This document shows positions 6,255 to 19,581 of a stretch of 64,000 nt of DNA, piece by piece (within the stretch, counting starts at the first letter, position 1; the number at the start of each line of letters is the position of its first letter). Under the pieces are notes generated by a model. That model worked only from the letters and a program-made list of their open reading frames with translations, had not been told where the DNA came from and searched no databases. The DNA lies in assembly GCF_001854325.1 (NCBI RefSeq), contig NZ_CP017755.1:1488001-1552000 (forward strand), written 5' to 3'. This DNA is from Cupriavidus malaysiensis. Lineage in GTDB: Bacteria > Pseudomonadota > Gammaproteobacteria > Burkholderiales > Burkholderiaceae. Position numbers and translations under genes: made by a program.

Positions 6255-7139
6255 CTAGTGCAGCCAGCCGCTGGCGAAAGCCGCGGCGGGAAGCGGCTGC
6301 GAGAACAGGAAACCCTGTACCTGGCGGCATCCCAGCTTGCGCAGTATCTCCAGTTGCGCAGGCGTTTCCACGCCCTCGGCGACCACCTGCATGTCCAATG
6401 CGCGGGCCAGCGCGACCACCGCGGCGACGATGGCGCAGGTCTTGGGCTCCTGAGCGTCGAGCGGTGTCACGAAACTGCGGTCCAGCTTGAGCTCGTGTGC
6501 CGCCAGCGCATGCAGGCGCGCCAGGCTGGAGTGGCCGGTGCCGAAATCATCCAGCGCCACCCGCAGCCCGGCGGTGCGCAGCCGGGCCAGCACATCGGCG
6601 ATGTACTGCGGATCGTGCATCGCGGTCGACTCGGTGAATTCCAGCAGCAGGCGATGCGGGCCGATACCGTGGCGCCGCAGGCAATGCCCGATCTGCGGCA
6701 GCAGGTCCGCATTGCGCAACTCGCGCAGGGAAACGTTGACGGCGACCTCGGGCGTGGGAAGGCCCTCGGCATCCCAGGCCGCCAGTTGCCGGCAGACCTC
6801 GTCGACCATCCAGTGCCCGATCGACTCGATGTGGCCGCTGCGCTCGGCCAGGGGGATGAATGTATCGGGCAGCAGCAGTCCGAAGCGGGGGTGCTGCCAG
6901 CGCGCCAGTGCTTCCGCGCCGACCAGTTGTCCGGTTGCGGTGTCCAGCTTGGGCTGGAAGAAGGCGCGCAGCTCGCCGCGCCGCGCGGCGTGTGGCAGGT
7001 CGCGCAGCAAGGCCTGGCTTCCGGCCGCAAGCGCCGTGGTGGCGGGGCGGGTGTTGCTGCGGGGACGGGGGTCCGGGCTCGGCGTGCCGATCGTGTTCAC
7101 AGGGTTCCGGCCTTGGCGGGGCATGGTATCCAGCGCCAC
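6255..7139 (-). CDS. EAL-domain c-di-GMP phosphodiesterase
   Basis: The 294-residue protein is almost entirely an EAL domain, which hydrolyses c-di-GMP to pGpG, preceded by about 45 unconserved residues with no sensor domain or membrane helix. The catalytic signature is complete: GAEALARW (EAL), NVSLREL, LEFTES (metal-binding Glu), ALDDFGTG (DDFGTG loop), [10 protein letters not shown] and VAEGVET. It ends with the typical [12 protein letters not shown]. The enzyme should therefore be active and cytoplasmic. Its position near a PilZ-containing BcsA makes control of cellulose synthesis plausible but unproven. The ATG at 7139 is used; a later in-frame start is possible because the N-terminus is not conserved. 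Confidence 0.92.
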
Positions 7140-10113: not shown

Positions 10114-10143
10114 TTGGGAGATGGCACGAAGGTTGCCTAGTAT
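10114..10143 (+). promoter_or_regulatory. Candidate sigma-70 promoter of the URC operon
   Basis: TTGGGA (10114-10119) and TAGTAT (10138-10143) are separated by 18 bases. Transcription would start near 10150, just upstream of the RutR-like operator and about 40 bases before the first ATG. Confidence 0.5.
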
Positions 10144-10154
10144 GGAAGCGTAAA

Positions 10155-10172
10155 CCTGACCATTTGGTCAGG
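10155..10172. promoter_or_regulatory. RutR-box operator
   Basis: CCTGACCA-TT-TGGTCAGG is a perfect 8-bp inverted repeat. Its core TGACCA-N2-TGGTCA matches the RutR consensus TTGACCANNTGGTCAA at every position but the outermost pair. It lies just downstream of the predicted -10, where a bound TetR-type dimer would block transcription. The operon it precedes encodes a RutR-like regulator, so the operator and its regulator are linked. Confidence 0.82.
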
Positions 10173-10192
10173 ATTTCCTTACCGAGGCCGTC

Positions 10193-11427
<1,235 letters not shown>

Positions 11428-11431
<4 letters not shown>

Positions 11432-12732
11432 ACGCTTTTCCGGAAGGGGATCTGGCGGGGGCCGGCGGTGCGGACGCAGGGAGCGGCTGGCTCTGTCCGC
11501 TGCCGGAGGGGCATCCCGCGGCAGCGCTGCTGAGCGCGCGGGCCGTGCGCAAGCATTGTGCCGAAGTGACGCGTTTCGTTGCCTCCGGGGAGTCGGCGCT
11601 GTTCAGCTGGCACCCGGAACGGGTGCCGGAAATCGCGGACTACGTGAGCGCGACCATCCGGCGCCGCTATCCGGACCTGGTCGTGCCCTACCATAGCCGC
11701 TGGCGCCATTTCGAGGCCGGCGGGCCCGGCGAGACCGTCGACCGCTGGCGCATGCTGTGCGAGCGCGCCGGCCTGAACGGGCCGGAGCAGCGCGAGGAGC
11801 GCGCCCGCATCGGCATCGACCTGGTGATTCCCAGCGTGCTGCTCGACGCCGGCGCCGGGCCAGACTGGCGCTACCGGGATTCCGCCAGCGACCAGATGCT
11901 GAGCCGCTCGGAGGGACTCGGCGTGGCCAGCTTCGACCTGTTCGCCCGCGGCGGCTTCTCCGCCGCGCTGGGCGACCCGCTGCGCGCCGATGCCGAGCGG
12001 CTGATGCGCATCGACGTCTCCTCCATCGCCAGCGCCTTCCAGGTCGCGCAGCATAATCCGCTGGTCGGCCTGGACGGCCGCGCCGGCCTGCTGCGGCGCC
12101 TGGGCGAGGTGGCGCAGGCCACGCCGGCCGTGTTCGGCGCGCCGGCCCGGCTCGGCAACCTGTTCGACTACCTGCGGGCGCATGCCAGCGATGGCCGCAT
12201 CGAAGCCGGCTTCGTGCTGCGTACCTTGCTGGTGGCCCTGGGGCCGGTGTGGCCGGGGCGCATGGTGCTGGATGGCGTGCCGCTGGGAGACTGCTGGCGG
12301 CACGCCGCCGCCGCCGGCGGCCTGGTCCCGCTGCACAAGCTCACGCAGTGGCTGACCTACTCGATGCTGGAACCGCTGGAGGATGGCGGGCTGACGGTGA
12401 CCGGCCTGGACGCGCTGACCGGCCTGCCGGAGTACCGCAACGGCGGCCTGCTCTACGACTTCGCGCTGATGGTGCCGCGTGACCCGGGCTTCGCCGGGCA
12501 CGCCCACACGGTAGGCGAGCCGGCCATCGTCGAATGGCGGGCCTTGACCGTGTCGGGCCTCGACCTGGTGGCGCAGAGCGTGCGCGATGCGCTCGGGCTG
12601 TCGGCCGAGGCCTTCCCGCTGGCGCGCGTGCTGGAGGGCGGCACCTGGGCGGCTGGCCGGCGCATCGCCGCCCAGCGGCGGCCTGGCGGCCCGCCGCCGT
12701 TCTCCATGATCAGCGACGGTACGGTGTTCTGA
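11428..12732 (+). CDS. DUF1688 protein, URC4-like uracil catabolism enzyme
   Basis: The 434-residue protein matches the URC4/DUF1688 family, named from the yeast URC pathway that converts uracil to urea and 3-hydroxypropionate. Family-like segments are [18 protein letters not shown] at the start, [46 protein letters not shown] and the invariant-looking end [10 protein letters not shown]. The exact chemistry is not settled; it is thought to act after URC1, on a ribosylurea-type intermediate. The ATG at 11428 overlaps the URC1 stop, so the two proteins are made together. It appears cytoplasmic. Confidence 0.88.
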
Positions 12733-12755
12733 CGCGGGCGCGCGGCAGGCGGGCG

Positions 12756-12773
12756 GGCAGCCGCAAGGCTGCC
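12756..12773 (+). other. Intercistronic hairpin between the URC4-like gene and upp
   Basis: GGCAGCC-GCAA-GGCTGCC forms a 7-bp stem with a stable GNRA-type tetraloop and no U-tract. It may stabilise or attenuate the mRNA between the two genes. Confidence 0.4.
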
Positions 12774-12848
12774 GGCGCCGGCCGTTGCCGCCGCGTCCGC
12801 GGGCCTGTCTCGTGGTCCCCGTCTGCAACCTGCCCCAGGAGCGACAAT

Positions 12849-13517
12849 ATGAACGACATCTCTTCAGCGACCCGGCTCGAAGGCGCCGCGCCCAATGTGC
12901 TGGTGGTCAGCCATCCGCTTGTCCAGCACAAGGTCACGCTGGCGCGCAGCGAGGAAACCACCACCGACAATTTCCGCCGGCTGGTGCGCGAGATCAGCCA
13001 GTTGCTGACCTATGAGGCCACGCGCGACCTGGCCATGGAGACGATCGACATCAAGACGCCGATCGCGCCGATGCGCTCGCCGGTGCTGTCCGGCAAGAAG
13101 CTGTGCCTGGTCTCGATCCTGCGCGCCGGCAACGGATTCCTCGATGGCATGCTCGAACTGCTGCCGGCCGCCCGCGTCGGCCACATCGGCTTGTACCGCG
13201 ATCCGGAGACGCTCGAACCGATCGAGTACTACTTCAAGATGCCCGAAGACATCCACGAGCGCCTGGTGATCGTGGTCGACCCGATGCTTGCCACCGGCAA
13301 CTCCGCCGTGGCCGCGCTCAACCGGCTCAAGGAGGCCGGCGTCAGCGCGCTCAAGTACGTCTGCCTGATCGCCTCGCGCCCGGGCCTGCGCGCGCTGCAG
13401 GCGGCGCATCCGGACGTGGCCATCGTCACCGCGGCGATCGACGAGACGCTCAACGAGCACGGCTACATCGTGCCGGGGCTGGGCGACGCCGGCGACCGCC
13501 TCTACGGTACCCGCTGA
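12849..13517 (+). CDS. upp: Uracil phosphoribosyltransferase (URC6-equivalent)
   Basis: UPRT makes UMP from uracil and PRPP. The 222-residue sequence has the family landmarks [24 protein letters not shown] at the N-terminus, [13 protein letters not shown] and [19 protein letters not shown]. The PRPP-binding loop is [12 protein letters not shown] and the uracil-binding end is [17 protein letters not shown]. In yeast the URC pathway needs a UPRT (URC6) to form the nucleotide that URC1 attacks, so this copy probably serves catabolism as well as salvage. A good ribosome-binding site (AGGAG) precedes the ATG at 12849. Its TGA overlaps the next ATG by one base (TGATG). Confidence 0.95.
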
Positions 13518-14242
13518 TGGACCTCGCGGCCACGGCGGATGGCCGGCTGCCCCCGAGCGCGGCCGGCGCGGCGGGCGGGGGCCGCATCCGCCAGGAGAAC
13601 GAGGCGCGCATCCTGCGTGCGGCGGAATATGTATTCGCGCGGGCGGGATTCGCCGGCGCCACCATGGCCGACATCGCCGTGCGCGCCGGCGTGCCCAAGT
13701 CCAACCTGCACTACTACTTCCGCACCAAGCAGGCGCTGTACCGTGCCGTGCTGTCCCACACGCTGCGCCTCTGGCTGTCGGAAACCGACATCATCGATGC
13801 CGCTACGCCGCCGCGGCGCGCGCTGGAGCAGTACATCCGCGCCAAGATGCGGCTGTCGGCCAGCTACCCCGACGCGTCGCGCGTGTTCGCCAACGAGCTG
13901 CTGCACGGCGCGCCGGAGATCGCCGACGTGCTGGGTGGCGCCTTGCGCGCGCTGGTGGCGCGCAAGGCCGAGGTGATCCGGCAATGGGTGGCCAGCGGGC
14001 AGATGGCGAGCGTTGATCCGCAGCACCTGTTCTTCACTATCTGGGCCGCCACCCAGACCTATGCCGATTTCGAGACCCAGGTGTGCGCCGTGCTCGGCGT
14101 GAGCCGGCTCGGTGCACGCGAGTTCGAGCGCGCCACCGACCACCTGGTCGGGCTGTTGTTGCGCGGCTGCGGCCTCCCGGGCGACGAAGGCGGTGCCGCC
14201 ATGGCGCCGGCGGAAGGGGAGCGCGGCGACCACGGGGCCTGA
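13517..14242 (+). CDS. RutR-like TetR-family regulator of pyrimidine metabolism
   Basis: The 241-residue protein has a TetR helix-turn-helix (residues about 30-75: ILRAAEYVFARAGFAGATM, then VPKSNLHYYFRTKQALYRAV). Its C-terminal half closely parallels E. coli RutR: LSASYPDASRVFANELLHGAP, QWVASGQMASVDPQHLFF and IWAATQTYADFETQV each have direct counterparts. RutR binds uracil or thymine and then releases its operator. Here the gene is the last of the URC operon and the operon promoter has a RutR box, so negative autoregulation with induction by uracil is likely. The start ATG at 13517 overlaps the upp stop. Confidence 0.86.
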   Translation: MDLAATADGRLPPSAAGAAGGGRIRQENEARILRAAEYVFARAGFAGATMADIAVRAGVPKSNLHYYFRTKQALYRAVLSHTLRLWLSETDIIDAATPPRRALEQYIRAKMRLSASYPDASRVFANELLHGAPEIADVLGGALRALVARKAEVIRQWVASGQMASVDPQHLFFTIWAATQTYADFETQVCAVLGVSRLGAREFERATDHLVGLLLRGCGLPGDEGGAAMAPAEGERGDHGA

Positions 14243-14319
14243 ACGACCCGGACGTCCCGGACGTCCCGGTCGCCGCGGCATACTGGCGGGATCACGTACG
14301 GTAACCACAGGGACCCACC

Positions 14320-15606
14320 ATGCTCGACCTGATCCTGCGCCACTGCAGCCTGCCCGACGGGCGTAGCGACATTGACATCGGCATCGCCGGCGCCCGCATC
14401 GTGGCGCTGGAGCCGGCGCTTGCCGCCAGCGCCGGCGAAGAGATCGATGCCGCCGGACAACTGGTGTCGCCGCCTTTCGTCGATGCCCACTTCCATATGG
14501 ACTCGACCCTTTCCTACGGGCAGCCGCGCGTGAACCGCTCGGGCACGCTGCTGGAAGGGATCGCGCTGTGGGGGGAACTCAAGCCCCTGCTGACGCAAGA
14601 GGCCCTGGTCGAGCGGGCACTGGCCTATTGCGACTGGGCGGTGGCCAAGGGCCTGCTGGCGATCCGCTCGCACGTGGACGTGTGCGATCCGCGGCTGCTG
14701 GCGGTGGAGGCGCTGCTGCACGTGCGCGAACGGGTCCGGCCCTATCTCGATCTCCAGCTCGTCGCCTTTCCGCAGGACGGTCTGCTACGCGCGCCGGGCG
14801 CGCTGGACAACCTGCGCCGCGCGCTCGACATGGGGGTGGACGTGGTCGGCGGCATCCCGCACTTCGAGCGGACCATGGCCGATGGGACAGAGTCGGTGCG
14901 CATCCTCTGCGAACTGGCGAGCGAGCGCGGCCTGCGCGTCGACATGCATTGCGACGAAAGCGACGATCCGATGTCGCGGCATATCGAGACGCTGGCCTGC
15001 CAAAGCCAGCGCCTCGGGCTGCAGGGCAGGGTGGCGGGCTCGCACCTGACCTCGATGCATTCGATGGACAACTACTACGTGTCGAAACTGCTGCCCCTGA
15101 TGCGCGAGGCCGGCGTGGCCGCCATCGCCAACCCGCTGATCAATATCACGCTGCAGGGGCGGCACGACACCTATCCGAAGCGGCGCGGCATGACGCGGGT
15201 GCCGGAACTGCTGGCGGCCGGCGTGCCGGTCGCCTTCGGCCACGACTGCGTGATGGACCCCTGGTACGGCCTGGGCTCGGCGGACATGCTGGAGGTCGCG
15301 CACATGGGTCTGCACGTCGCGCAGATGACCGGCCAGGAAGCCATGCGCGAATGCTTCGCGGCGGTCACCGCGACGCCTGCCGCCATCCTCGGCCTGGAAG
15401 GCTACGGGCTGGCGCCAGGATGCCGCGCCGACCTCGTGCTGCTGCAGGCGCGCGATCCGGTCGAGGCCCTGCGGCTGCGCGCCACGCGCCTGCTGGTGCT
15501 GCGTGCCGGCAAGGTGGTGGCCAGGACGCCACCCGCGACGGCGACCCTCTACCTGTCCGGGCGCCCGCCTTCGGTCAGCTTCCAGCCGCCCCGGGGCCAG
15601 GCATGA
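14320..15606 (+). CDS. codA: Cytosine deaminase (amidohydrolase family)
   Basis: The 428-residue protein is a metal-dependent amidohydrolase of the CodA type, converting cytosine to uracil and ammonia. Metal ligands are seen in PFVDAHFHMD (HxH), RSHVDVCD, DMHCDESDD (His and the CodA-type Glu) and SHLTSMH. The late Asp is in PVAFGHDCVMDPWYGLG, which is diagnostic for cytosine deaminase. A 77-bp gap separates it from the regulator gene, so it may be in the URC operon or have its own promoter; I saw no second RutR box there. It would feed uracil to the upstream UPRT/URC enzymes. Related enzymes act on isoguanine or creatinine, so the substrate remains inferred. Confidence 0.87.
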   Translation: MLDLILRHCSLPDGRSDIDIGIAGARIVALEPALAASAGEEIDAAGQLVSPPFVDAHFHMDSTLSYGQPRVNRSGTLLEGIALWGELKPLLTQEALVERALAYCDWAVAKGLLAIRSHVDVCDPRLLAVEALLHVRERVRPYLDLQLVAFPQDGLLRAPGALDNLRRALDMGVDVVGGIPHFERTMADGTESVRILCELASERGLRVDMHCDESDDPMSRHIETLACQSQRLGLQGRVAGSHLTSMHSMDNYYVSKLLPLMREAGVAAIANPLINITLQGRHDTYPKRRGMTRVPELLAAGVPVAFGHDCVMDPWYGLGSADMLEVAHMGLHVAQMTGQEAMRECFAAVTATPAAILGLEGYGLAPGCRADLVLLQARDPVEALRLRATRLLVLRAGKVVARTPPATATLYLSGRPPSVSFQPPRGQA

Positions 15607-15753: not shown

Positions 15754-15840
15754 GCCCAGATGGCGGAATTGGTAGACGCACTAGGTTCAGGTCCTAGCGG
15801 TGGCAACACTGTGGAGGTTCGAGTCCTCTTCTGGGCACCA
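15754..15840 (+). tRNA. tRNA-Leu (anticodon CAG)
   Basis: An 87-base class-II tRNA with acceptor stem GCCCAGA / TCTGGGC, discriminator A and encoded CCA. The D-arm is TGGCGGAATTGGTAGACGCA, the anticodon arm CTAGG-TTCAGGT-CCTAG. A long variable arm is followed by the T-arm GGTTCGAGTCC. The anticodon CAG reads CUG, the dominant leucine codon of this genome. Confidence 0.98.
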
Positions 15841-16132
15841 TATCCAAAAGGCAGATGATCGCAAGATCATCTGCCTTTTTCATTTGTCCGCCCGGAAAGT
15901 CAGGTGCCTGCGCACCTGACGTGAGGACTCGAAGGGCCTGGCTTGCAAGCCAGGCCGGGGTCGCGCCAGTGTGACCGAGTCCTCTTCTGGGCACCATATT
16001 TGAAAGGCAGATGATCACAAGATCGTCTGCCTTTTTCATTTTGTCCGCCCGGAAAGCCGGGTGCCTGCGCACTTGAGGTGGGGACTCGAGGGCCTGGCTT
16101 GCAGGTCGGGCCGGTGCGGCCGCGTGCGCTTC
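15821..16132. repeat. 156-bp tandem duplication containing the tRNA-Leu 3' end and terminator
   Basis: Two head-to-tail units, 15821-15976 and about 15977-16132, each begin GAGTCCTCTTCTGGGCACCA (the last 20 bases of tRNA-Leu). They continue through a terminator hairpin and a shared GTCCGCCCGGAAAG segment. The period is exactly 156 bases. Unit 1 also holds a perfect 9-bp dyad (15899-15920) and a perfect 22-bp palindrome (15935-15956). Both are degraded in unit 2, indicating an old duplication under no constraint. Confidence 0.9.
15846..15880 (+). terminator. Rho-independent terminator of tRNA-Leu
   Basis: An 11-bp GC-containing stem GGCAGATGATC / GATCATCTGCC with loop GCAA is flanked by AAAA and TTTTT, five bases after the tRNA. 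A second, slightly decayed copy lies at 16003-16035 in the duplicated unit. Confidence 0.9.
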
Positions 16133-17756: not shown

Positions 17757-18986
17757 TCAGGCGGCGCCGGCGACGGCCGCGCGCGCCAGCAGCGGCGTGG
17801 CATCGACCGTGTCTTCCGCGGCGCGCACGCGGTTGCGGCCATGTTGCTTGGCCTGGTACAGGGCCGCGTCGGCACGCGCTGCCAGTTCGGCCAGTCCTTC
17901 GCCGGGCCGCAGCGTGGCAAGGCCCGCGCTGAGGGTGTAGCCCACCGTGCCGAAATCGCCGTCGACGCGGTCGGCCGCGGCCAGCACGCGGATCCGCTCC
18001 GCGATGCGCCGTGCCGCGTTGCCGCCGAGCTCCGGCAGCAAGATGGCGAACTCCTCGCCGCCGAGGCGTCCGAGGCGATCGGCCGGCCGCGTCTGCGTGC
18101 GCGCGAGCCGGGCAAAGCGCTGCAGTACCACATCGCCGGCATGATGTCCGAAGCGGTCGTTGACGTGCTTGAAGTGGTCGATGTCGACGATCAGCAAGGT
18201 GAGGCTGAGCCCTTGCCGCCGCGCCGCGGCGAATTGCCGCGCGGCTTCGGACTCGAAGGCCTGGCGCGACAACGTGCCGGTGAGGAAGTCCGTGTTGGCC
18301 GCGTCTTCGAGCCGGCGCACGAGCCGGTCGTGGATCATTACCACGGTGCACAGTGTCATCGCTGGCATGGCCAGCGGGCCGAGCAGCAGGAAGCCGATAT
18401 GCAGGCCGGCAGGCGCCAGCGAGTGGCCTGGCGCGCCATCGGCCAGCGCGGCCAGCGCGGCCTGCGCCGACAGGAGGCTGCGCAGCAGGTAGACGGTGCC
18501 GAAGAACAGCGCGCAGGCGGCCGTGGCGTAGCGGCTCGCGGCATGGCGCTGGCCGACGGCTTCGCGGTCGCGCCGCAGCAGGACGATGCCTGCATGCAAG
18601 GACAACGCGGCCTGCAGCGCGGAGACGCAGGCCACGCGCAGGTTGAAATCGTCGCGCCCGTAGCGCCACGCCACCACGCCCGCCGTCACGGCGGCGATGG
18701 CCCACCACAGCCGGCGCCAGTCGGGCCGGCGCCCGCTGAAGCGGAGCAGGCCCGCGTAGAACTGTGCCGACCCCCACAGCAGCAGGAGATTGGCGGTAAT
18801 GACGGAAAGCAGGTCGCTGGCGTGGCCGCGCAAGCCGAACAGCAGCAGAGACATTGCCACCGCGACGTTGCCTTGCCACCACTGGCGTACACCGGGCACA
18901 TCGCAGCGCCGCAGCGACCAGACCATGACGAGCATCATGGCGCCCAGCACTGGCATGGCGATCTGGATGGCGAGCAAGGCCGGCAT
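17757..18986 (-). CDS. Membrane-bound diguanylate cyclase (GGDEF)
   Basis: The 409-residue protein has about six to seven N-terminal hydrophobic helices and a C-terminal GGDEF domain that makes c-di-GMP from two GTP. It shows DFLTGTLSRQAF (start of the domain) and LIVDIDHFKHVNDRFGH (metal and nucleotide site). The catalytic GRLGGEEFAILL is near residue 309, preceded five residues upstream by RPAD, an inhibitory I-site (RxxD), so product inhibition is expected. The ATG at 18986 is chosen because the hydrophobic region begins there; the same frame extends upstream without hydrophobic character. It ends close to a shared terminator. Confidence 0.92.
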   Translation of the reverse strand: MPALLAIQIAMPVLGAMMLVMVWSLRRCDVPGVRQWWQGNVAVAMSLLLFGLRGHASDLLSVITANLLLLWGSAQFYAGLLRFSGRRPDWRRLWWAIAAVTAGVVAWRYGRDDFNLRVACVSALQAALSLHAGIVLLRRDREAVGQRHAASRYATAACALFFGTVYLLRSLLSAQAALAALADGAPGHSLAPAGLHIGFLLLGPLAMPAMTLCTVVMIHDRLVRRLEDAANTDFLTGTLSRQAFESEAARQFAAARRQGLSLTLLIVDIDHFKHVNDRFGHHAGDVVLQRFARLARTQTRPADRLGRLGGEEFAILLPELGGNAARRIAERIRVLAAADRVDGDFGTVGYTLSAGLATLRPGEGLAELAARADAALYQAKQHGRNRVRAAEDTVDATPLLARAAVAGAA

Positions 18987-19581
18987 CGGGGCGGGTCCTC
19001 GGGTGGATGGGGCGCGTGCCGGACCGGAGGCGGCCTGGGTGCGCGAAACGGCTGCAATGATACCCACAGAGCGAGGGATCGGAGCAAGGCGCGGCAACGC
19101 GTCGCGCCGCATGGCACGTGCAACCGTGCCGGCGGCGGCAGTGGCGGAAAGGAGAAAGGGGCAGGCAGAGGCGAGGTCTCTGCCGCCCAAGCCGCAAGTG
19201 TGCGGCAACCGGTTCGACACATGCTAACCACGGTGCCGCCTTGCCAATGCCGCGAATAGGACAGGTTTTCCGTCGGCTTTCCGCGCGCGCTGCAGCCGGC
19301 GGGGACATGGGGTTGCCGCGGGACCCGCCGCGCGGGCCGTGCAGCCGCTTGGCGGGATACCTGTGCGATGTCCTGCCGGGAGCAGGGACCATGCGCGCGA
19401 AGGGAGCAAGAAAAAAGCCGCCAGGCGAGTCGGGCCGGCGGCATGGAGAAGCGAAACGAGGAGCACCGTGTGGTGTCGAATTCAGTCTAGTTCCGCGCGC
19501 GACAAGCGAATGCAATCAATTGTGAGTGGTCCAGGCAGCATGGCGGGGCCATCGGCCGGCGCCGCTTGCCTGCCCGCGGCG

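What the first reader, a model, noticed from the sequence alone, without database searches (positions are those of the whole stretch)
10114..15606. A URC-type uracil catabolism cluster wired to a RutR-like repressor
URC1-like, URC4-like (DUF1688) and UPRT genes are translationally coupled or closely spaced and followed by a RutR-like TetR gene and cytosine deaminase. RutR normally controls the unrelated Rut pathway; here the same kind of sensor is attached to the alternative ring-opening route known mainly from yeast. It would be a self-contained cytosine/uracil to UMP to ribosylurea-type system in a bacterium. Bacterial URC chemistry is little studied.
Basis: partly seen in the sequence, partly recalled or inferred. 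Interest (0 to 1): 0.78.

Follow-up and report, generated by a model that had tools for sequence, protein, structure and literature searches.

The report
Uracil-breakdown operon with swapped-in uracil sensor
A Cupriavidus bacterium carries a compact set of genes that probably lets it take nitrogen from cytosine and uracil by a route best known from yeast, apparently switched on by a uracil-sensing repressor whose relatives often control a different uracil pathway.

Summary
In detail: URC1 (10193-11431), URC4/DUF1688 (11428-12732), UPRT (12849-13517), a RutR-like TetR (13517-14242) and cytosine deaminase (14320-15606) form one co-directional cluster in a Cupriavidus-type genome. New here: (1) A RutR-type palindrome, CTGACCATTTGGTCAG, lies 21 nt before URC1; it is present in 41 of 41 Cupriavidus-type loci and in 1 of 29 other URC loci, the only one of those with a RutR-like neighbour. 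(2) The five uracil-contacting residues of E. coli RutR are conserved in 41 of 41. (3) The regulator is not RutR proper; it groups with regulators of reductive-pathway operons. (4) The genome has no RutA or PreA over cut-off but has urease. (5) URC4's predicted fold matches Qng1, a nucleotide N-glycosylase, suggesting how urea is cut from ribose. Bacterial URC genes were already known and RutR-family control is not limited to Rut, so this is a regulatory variant of a known pathway. No function was tested.

The parts
10156..10171 (.). RutR-type operator palindrome CTGACCATTTGGTCAG, 21 nt before the URC1 start codon
   Evidence: Exact match to TGACCANNTGGTCA; one of only two exact places in 7.95 Mb, the other inside a frame that by eye is pheT; conserved in 41 of 41 Cupriavidus-type loci
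10114..10143 (+). possible promoter (TTGGGA - 18 nt - TAGTAT), just upstream of the operator
   Evidence: Read by eye; partly conserved columns across 41 loci; below the threshold of the consensus scan, so weak
10193..11431 (+). URC1: GTP-cyclohydrolase-II-family ring-opening enzyme of the URC pathway
   Evidence: PF12471 275 bits, PF00925 50 bits; PRK07198 783 bits; PDB 7eev/7ej3 644.7 bits over residues 3-411
11428..12732 (+). URC4 (DUF1688): proposed N-glycosidase that releases urea from ribosylurea (phosphate)
   Evidence: PF07958 451 bits; AlphaFold2 pLDDT 89.7; 11 best PDB matches all Qng1/DUF2419, E 6.1e-11 to 8.0e-9
12849..13517 (+). uracil phosphoribosyltransferase (upp / URC6-type)
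   Evidence: PF14681 256 bits; TIGR01091 269.3 bits over cut-off 208.35
13517..14242 (+). RutR-like TetR repressor with conserved uracil pocket
   Evidence: PF08362 169 bits; TIGR03613 193.7 bits, under cut-off 368; 3loc/4jyk E 2.6e-44; residues equivalent to W77, Y97, W167, Q171, Q179 conserved in 41 of 41
14320..15606 (+). cytosine deaminase
   Evidence: NCBIfam PRK07572 823 bits over cut-off 438

Best explanation
It is a URC-type uracil/cytosine catabolic operon under a local uracil-sensing repressor. Without uracil the RutR-like TetR sits on the palindrome at 10156-10171, just in front of URC1, and blocks the operon, its own gene included; uracil (or thymine) in the conserved pocket releases it. 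Cytosine is deaminated to uracil; UPRT makes UMP; URC1 hydrolytically opens the pyrimidine ring at the nucleotide level (UMP, or UTP after ordinary kinases), leaving a C3 fragment and a ribosylurea phosphate; URC4, a distant homologue of the queuosine-nucleotide N-glycosylase Qng1, cuts the N-glycosidic bond to give urea and a ribose phosphate; the urease encoded elsewhere then releases ammonia. Shown here: gene content and order, operator and its conservation, pocket conservation, absence of RutA/PreA over cut-off, presence of urease alpha, URC4 fold relationship. Inferred: repression and its relief by uracil, every reaction, flux to urea, one transcript.
For: Families and coupling. Operator in 41 of 41 Cupriavidus-type loci with 18-40 nt to the URC1 ATG; 13 of 16 box columns at least 95% conserved against 6 of 60 upstream and 4 of 60 downstream. 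Operator (at most 1 mismatch within 260 nt of URC1) in 42 of 42 URC loci with a RutR-like neighbour and in 0 of 28 without, whose best sites have 3 or more mismatches. Of 60 genus genomes searched, the 30 exact-site loci returned all lead into URC1. Pocket residues 41 of 41 (residues from PMC10891134, passages). No RutA or PreA over cut-off, urease alpha 967 bits. URC4 fold matches Qng1, with weak sequence support: 11 of 30 URC4 proteins match PF10343, best E 5e-5. Yeast parallels: URC4 assigned to ribosylurea-to-urea in L. kluyveri (PMC7530994, passages); the S. pombe urg1-urg2-urg3 cluster (URC1-, UPRT- and URC4-type) is induced by uracil (PMC2174524, passages).
Against: No experiment. The TetR misses the RutR equivalog cut-off, so the effector could differ. 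In the window, sites with up to 2 mismatches (4) are only modestly over chance (mean 1.13; 4 of 100 shuffles reach 4); in the genome, places with at most 1 mismatch (20) are fewer than those of the reversed control pattern (32); across the genus all 60 genomes have a match with at most 1 mismatch, but many also match the control pattern. Only exactness, place and conservation speak for the site. One URC locus without a RutR-like neighbour (L164) has a 1-mismatch site further upstream, inside its deaminase gene. The palindrome also scores as terminator-like. A dihydropyrimidinase/hydantoinase over cut-off exists elsewhere (C1:513059-514429), though no PreA was found. The oxidative (barbiturase) route, a second upp gene and urea amidolyase were not searched. 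The substrate of URC1 in vivo is open. PF10343 matches stay below its gathering score (23.4 of 25 bits at best among those scored singly) and the window's own URC4 has none.
Confidence: 0.82

Rival explanations
1. The enzymes are a URC operon, but the TetR responds to another ligand (a pathway intermediate such as ribosylurea, or a nucleotide) rather than to uracil.
For: Only moderate similarity to E. coli RutR (43% identity); under the RutR cut-off.
Against: All five uracil-contact residues conserved in 41 of 41 and the operator is of RutR type; the closest relative found outside Cupriavidus sits in a uracil-reductive operon.
Confidence: 0.12
2. URC1 is a riboflavin-pathway GTP cyclohydrolase II, as NCBIfam names it, and the cluster is not for uracil breakdown.
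For: PRK07198 'GTP cyclohydrolase II' 783 bits.
Against: The other GTP cyclohydrolase II models listed score far below their cut-offs (38.8-55.9 bits against 148-764); URC1 lies with URC4 and UPRT in 41 of 41 Cupriavidus-type loci, and with UPRT in the fetched flank in 28 of 29 others; the solved relative of similar length is, by recall, the UTP cyclohydrolase.
Confidence: 0.03
3. The palindrome before URC1 is an intrinsic terminator or attenuator rather than an operator.
For: Listed as terminator-like, 7 pairs; lies between the possible promoter and the start codon.
Against: Two terminator-like hits against 1.3 expected; the same palindrome type lies by RutR-like operons of other pathways and, near URC1, only where a RutR-like gene is a neighbour.
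Confidence: 0.06
4. Uracil in this genome is mainly used by another route (for example a reductive one through the dihydropyrimidinase at C1:513059) and the URC cluster is for salvage or detoxification.
For: Dihydropyrimidinase/hydantoinase 519.7 bits over cut-off.
Against: No PreA over cut-off (best 29.5 of 335 bits) and no RutA; the neighbours of that gene that I scanned give weak matches to arylmalonate decarboxylase/EutA and strong ones to amidohydrolase, not to DPD.
Confidence: 0.07

Closest known systems
URC pathway of Lachancea kluyveri / urg1-urg2-urg3 cluster of Schizosaccharomyces pombe
   Same: URC1, URC4 (DUF1688) and UPRT together; uracil-induced in S. pombe; ribosylurea to urea step assigned to URC4
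   Different: Yeast uses other regulators (recalled) and urea amidolyase (URC3,5); here a TetR-family repressor and, elsewhere in the genome, urease
E. coli RutR and the rut operon
   Same: TetR family with YcdC-type C-terminal domain, uracil-pocket residues, palindromic operator
   Different: Different enzymes; the regulator falls outside the clade of the four Rut-linked regulators (100/97) and under the RutR cut-off
RutR-like regulators of reductive (PreTA-dihydropyrimidinase-carbamoylase) operons, e.g. L232 and Azospirillum sp. B510 L259
   Same: L232's is the closest regulator found outside Cupriavidus (61%); L259's is 54% identical. L232 has 1-mismatch boxes at the 5' edge of its called preT-like frame and before its transporter operon
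   Different: They stand with the reductive pathway, whose PreA this genome lacks over cut-off
Azospirillum brasilense plasmid URC operon (L167)
   Same: URC1-URC4-UPRT, then BMP-type ABC transporter, then cytosine-deaminase-like gene (76% identity)
   Different: No RutR-like TetR between UPRT and the transporter; the window lacks the transporter in this place
Qng1 / DUF2419 queuosine-5'-monophosphate N-glycosylase
   Same: URC4 model matches it best (E 6.1e-11, TM 0.74 on target); weak sequence-profile matches
   Different: 14-20% identity in the fold alignments; substrate differs; URC4 is about 100 residues longer than the solved chains

Membership tests
bacterial URC cluster | URC1 + URC4 (DUF1688) + UPRT linked | tested here: met
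bacterial URC cluster | uracil used as nitrogen source through urea | not testable with these tools
   needs growth and metabolite tests; only urease alpha presence shown
RutR (TIGR03613 equivalog) | score at or over the curated cut-off of 368 bits | tested here: not met
   193.7 bits
RutR (TIGR03613 equivalog) | linked to rutABCDEFG | tested here: not met
   no RutA over cut-off in the genome; linked to URC genes instead
RutR-like superfamily (TetR with YcdC-like domain PF08362) | PF08362 plus TetR_N over gathering score | tested here: met
   169 and 52.4 bits
RutR-like superfamily (TetR with YcdC-like domain PF08362) | uracil-contact residues W77, Y97, W167, Q171, Q179 | tested here: met
   41 of 41 Cupriavidus-type proteins, plus L166 and L232
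RutR-like superfamily (TetR with YcdC-like domain PF08362) | TGACCA-N2-TGGTCA operator upstream of target | tested here: met
   consensus letters recalled; binding itself not testable here
Qng1-type N-glycosylase fold (URC4) | shared fold | tested here: met
   11 best PDB matches, next best E 0.03; on a predicted model
Qng1 family (PF10343) proper | score at or over gathering cut-off 25 | tested here: not met
   best member 23.4 bits; window protein has no PF10343 match

The most novel reading that the evidence does not exclude
One uracil sensor plus its DNA operator acts as a portable module that has been moved between unrelated uracil-breakdown pathways: in Cupriavidus (and perhaps independently in Pseudoroseomonas) a regulator of reductive-pathway ancestry was inserted into a horizontally acquired, Azospirillum-like URC operon. 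And URC4/DUF1688, a family still named 'unknown function' in Pfam, is a nucleotide N-glycosidase of the Qng1 fold that cuts urea off ribosylurea phosphate.
Probability: 0.6. Interest if true: 0.75.

Novelty: new variant of a known kind. Interest (0 to 1): 0.62.

Why it matters
It makes the bacterial URC pathway testable in a culturable genus, with a defined operator, a predicted inducer and, in this genome, no PreA or RutA over cut-off to confuse the result. It shows how a sensor can be kept while the enzymes under it are exchanged. The fold link gives DUF1688 a concrete bond-breaking mechanism to test, in line with the ribosylurea-to-urea step assigned in yeast. It also bears on database names: bacterial URC1 proteins are labelled 'GTP cyclohydrolase II', which hides a uracil pathway under riboflavin.

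Tried and rejected
A wider regulon in the genome: 20 places with at most 1 mismatch, against 32 for the reversed control. The second exact place lies in a frame that by eye is pheT. A box-like site recurring in other Cupriavidus genomes lies, in the 4 examined, in a frame that by eye is transketolase; of two further sites looked at, one lies in a called frame and one (L256) between two convergent frames. So a one-operon regulon is favoured, not proven. A reductive pathway at C1:513059: dihydropyrimidinase present but no PreA over cut-off. PDB sequence search for URC4: nothing relevant; only the fold search worked. Single origin of URC-linked regulators: two label changes on the tree, but one clade is not rejected (p-AU 0.103). 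URC-linked RutR-like genes outside Cupriavidus: 1 of 29 URC loci (L166), within fetched flanks. My rough gene caller missed URC4 in some loci; counts rest on tblastn instead. Whether RegPrecise already lists a Cupriavidus RutR regulon with URC genes could not be seen (PMC5343134: passages only; those passages do not mention URC). Paper searches showed no title or abstract start that reports this wiring; I looked at listings only, capped (25 of 69; 30 of 52; 10 of 15), in a library that lacks most subscription journals. The link URC4-Qng1 was not searched for as such.
Full report
WHAT IS THERE. The window is part of a 7.95-Mb, three-contig genome whose nearest named matches are Cupriavidus: 40 named loci encode a relative of its URC4, 39 of them 74-81% identical (all labelled Cupriavidus except one Ralstonia sp. 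and one Burkholderiaceae bacterium) and one, Ramlibacter, 48%. Five co-directional genes lie at 10193-15606: URC1, URC4/DUF1688, UPRT, a RutR-like TetR and cytosine deaminase. URC1 and URC4 overlap by ATGA, UPRT and TetR by TGATG. The cluster is followed by a tRNA-Leu gene at 15754. Below, 'Cupriavidus-type loci' are the window's own, those 39 and C. metallidurans CH34 (41; L258 makes 42).

OPERATOR. Twenty-one bases before the URC1 ATG stands CTGACCATTTGGTCAG (10156-10171), an exact match to the RutR-type core TGACCANNTGGTCA (letters recalled). The whole genome has two exact places; the other lies inside a frame that by eye is pheT. Loose matches are not enriched: 4 in the window against 1.13 expected, reached by 4 of 100 shuffles, and 20 places in the genome against 32 for the reversed control. 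What carries the claim is conservation: in 41 of 41 Cupriavidus-type loci the site has 0 (23) or 1 (18) mismatch within 260 nt of URC1, with 18-40 nt to the ATG and 13 of 16 box columns at least 95% conserved, against 6 of 60 and 4 of 60 flanking columns. In the genus, 60 of 60 genomes hold the pattern with at most 1 mismatch, though many also match the control pattern; more telling, the 30 exact-site loci returned all run into URC1. Of 29 other URC loci only one has the box within 260 nt of URC1, a Pseudoroseomonas cervicalis plasmid (L166), and it is also the only one with a RutR-like neighbour, divergent from URC1; one more (L164) has a 1-mismatch site inside its deaminase gene.

THE REGULATOR. 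Its best solved relative is E. coli RutR (E 2.6e-44). The residues that hold uracil there, W77, Y97, W167, Q171 and Q179 (PMC10891134, passages), and K52/K62 are identical in 41 of 41 Cupriavidus-type proteins and in L166 and L232. It nevertheless misses the RutR equivalog cut-off (193.7 of 368 bits). In a sample of 398 genomes of the phylum, 125 have a relative at E <= 1e-20. I fetched 18 of these loci by choice: 9 hold PreA, 1 dihydropyrimidinase plus carbamoylase, 1 carbamoylase only, 3 rutA and rutB, 4 none of these markers. The closest, 61% identical (L232, same order), sits with preT-like, PreA, dihydropyrimidinase and carbamoylase genes, with 1-mismatch boxes at the 5' edge of the called preT-like frame and before a transporter operon. 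Trees place the Cupriavidus regulators with L232 (98/93; with L232 and a Klebsiella plasmid reductive operon, 95/93), while the four Rut-linked regulators form their own clade (100/97; joined by one regulator of unknown context, L246). Regulators in reductive context occur on both sides of these trees. Three annotated plasmid loci with reductive genes confirm the context. So the sensor here is of reductive-pathway kind rather than a RutR taken from a rut operon. Two separate attachments to URC are favoured but one is not rejected (p-AU 0.103).

THE OPERON'S HISTORY. DUF1688 is patchy: 4 of 369 genomes of the class and 26 of 398 of the phylum are over cut-off, and in a sample of 249 genomes of the family all 30 positives are of this genus, 1 of 25 genera. 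URC1 of Cupriavidus does not group with URC1 of its order-mates (these join Gordonia, 100/100) but with a mixed clade containing Azospirillum and Pseudoroseomonas (95/89), which suggests horizontal transfer. Among 42 Cupriavidus-type loci, 21 have cytosine deaminase straight after the TetR, 20 have a four-gene BMP-type ABC transporter there (deaminase seen after it in the one with enough flank, L258), 1 is cut by the contig end. Azospirillum brasilense has the long order without the TetR. I infer that the TetR was inserted between UPRT and the transporter, and that the short form, as in the window, lost the transporter.

ALTERNATIVE URACIL ROUTES. RutA: best 81.7 of 498.3 bits. PreA: best 29.5 of 335 bits. 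A dihydropyrimidinase/hydantoinase over cut-off lies at C1:513059-514429; of its neighbours scanned, one matches arylmalonate decarboxylase and EutA weakly and one amidohydrolase strongly, none DPD. Urease alpha is present, 967 bits.

URC4. No solved sequence relative was found. AlphaFold2 on 27 aligned URC4 proteins gives pLDDT 89.7, pTM 0.88. The eleven best PDB matches are all Qng1/DUF2419, E 6.1e-11 to 8.0e-9, probability 1.00, target TM 0.71-0.75; the next match has E 0.03. By sequence, 11 of 30 URC4 proteins match PF10343 (Q_salvage) at E <= 10, best 5e-5, while no other foreign family matches more than 2 of 30; the matches placed lie in the C-terminal half and stay under the gathering score, and the window's own protein has none. 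Qng1 frees queuine from queuosine-5'-monophosphate (PMC12301720, passage). In L. kluyveri URC4 is assigned to ribosylurea-to-urea (PMC7530994, passages). The two fit: URC4 as an N-glycosidase freeing urea from ribosylurea phosphate. The stretches HKLxQW (303-308) and LTxLxEYRNGG (330-340), with invariant H303, K304, Q307, W308 and T331, E335, Y336, R337, N338, resemble, from memory, Qng1 active-site motifs; not verified.

WHAT WAS KNOWN. [quoted passage not shown] that bacterial URC1, URC4 and UPRT genes are linked is recalled from the abstract of Andersen et al. 2008 (not seen here; cited in the reference list shown). S. pombe urg1-3 are clustered and uracil-induced (PMC2174524, passages). 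UTP cyclohydrolase: titles in reference lists only. RutR regulons in 68 genomes of 13 groups with taxon-specific motifs: PMC5343134, passages. Public records already call the neighbour 'URC4/urg3 family protein'.

VERDICT. Real, conserved, coherent; a regulatory variant of a known pathway, with a testable enzyme assignment for DUF1688. All function is inferred.

Noticed in passing
window 15754-16041: tRNA-Leu(CAG) whose 3' end plus following hairpin is repeated 156 bp downstream (15820-15885 and 15976-16041, 92%), as if by tandem duplication or an old integration event.
   Followed up: partly
L041 and L174: URC1 is split over two reading frames in Cupriavidus basilensis OR16 (L041) and in one unnamed genus genome (L174): a broken gene or a sequencing error.
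   Followed up: no
L261 (Klebsiella quasipneumoniae plasmid NZ_CP147547.1): A complete-looking reductive pyrimidine operon with ABC transporter and RutR-like TetR on a plasmid typed as conjugative; PreA also on three other Klebsiella plasmids.
   Followed up: partly
L167 and L259: Within Azospirillum plasmids, A. brasilense carries the URC operon (no RutR-like gene within the fetched flank), whereas Azospirillum sp. B510 carries a reductive operon with a RutR-like gene: possibly a natural pathway exchange inside one genus.
   Followed up: partly
own genome C1:513059-514429 (L036): A dihydropyrimidinase/hydantoinase over cut-off without any PreA over cut-off, next to a gene with weak matches to arylmalonate decarboxylase/EutA.
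   Followed up: partly
L237, L238, L240, L246: RutR-like regulators with no Rut, reductive or URC marker in the fetched flank; their targets are unknown.
   Followed up: no
window 6255-7139 (-) and 17757-19220 (-): EAL-domain and GGDEF-domain genes lie on either side of the cluster at some distance.
   Followed up: no
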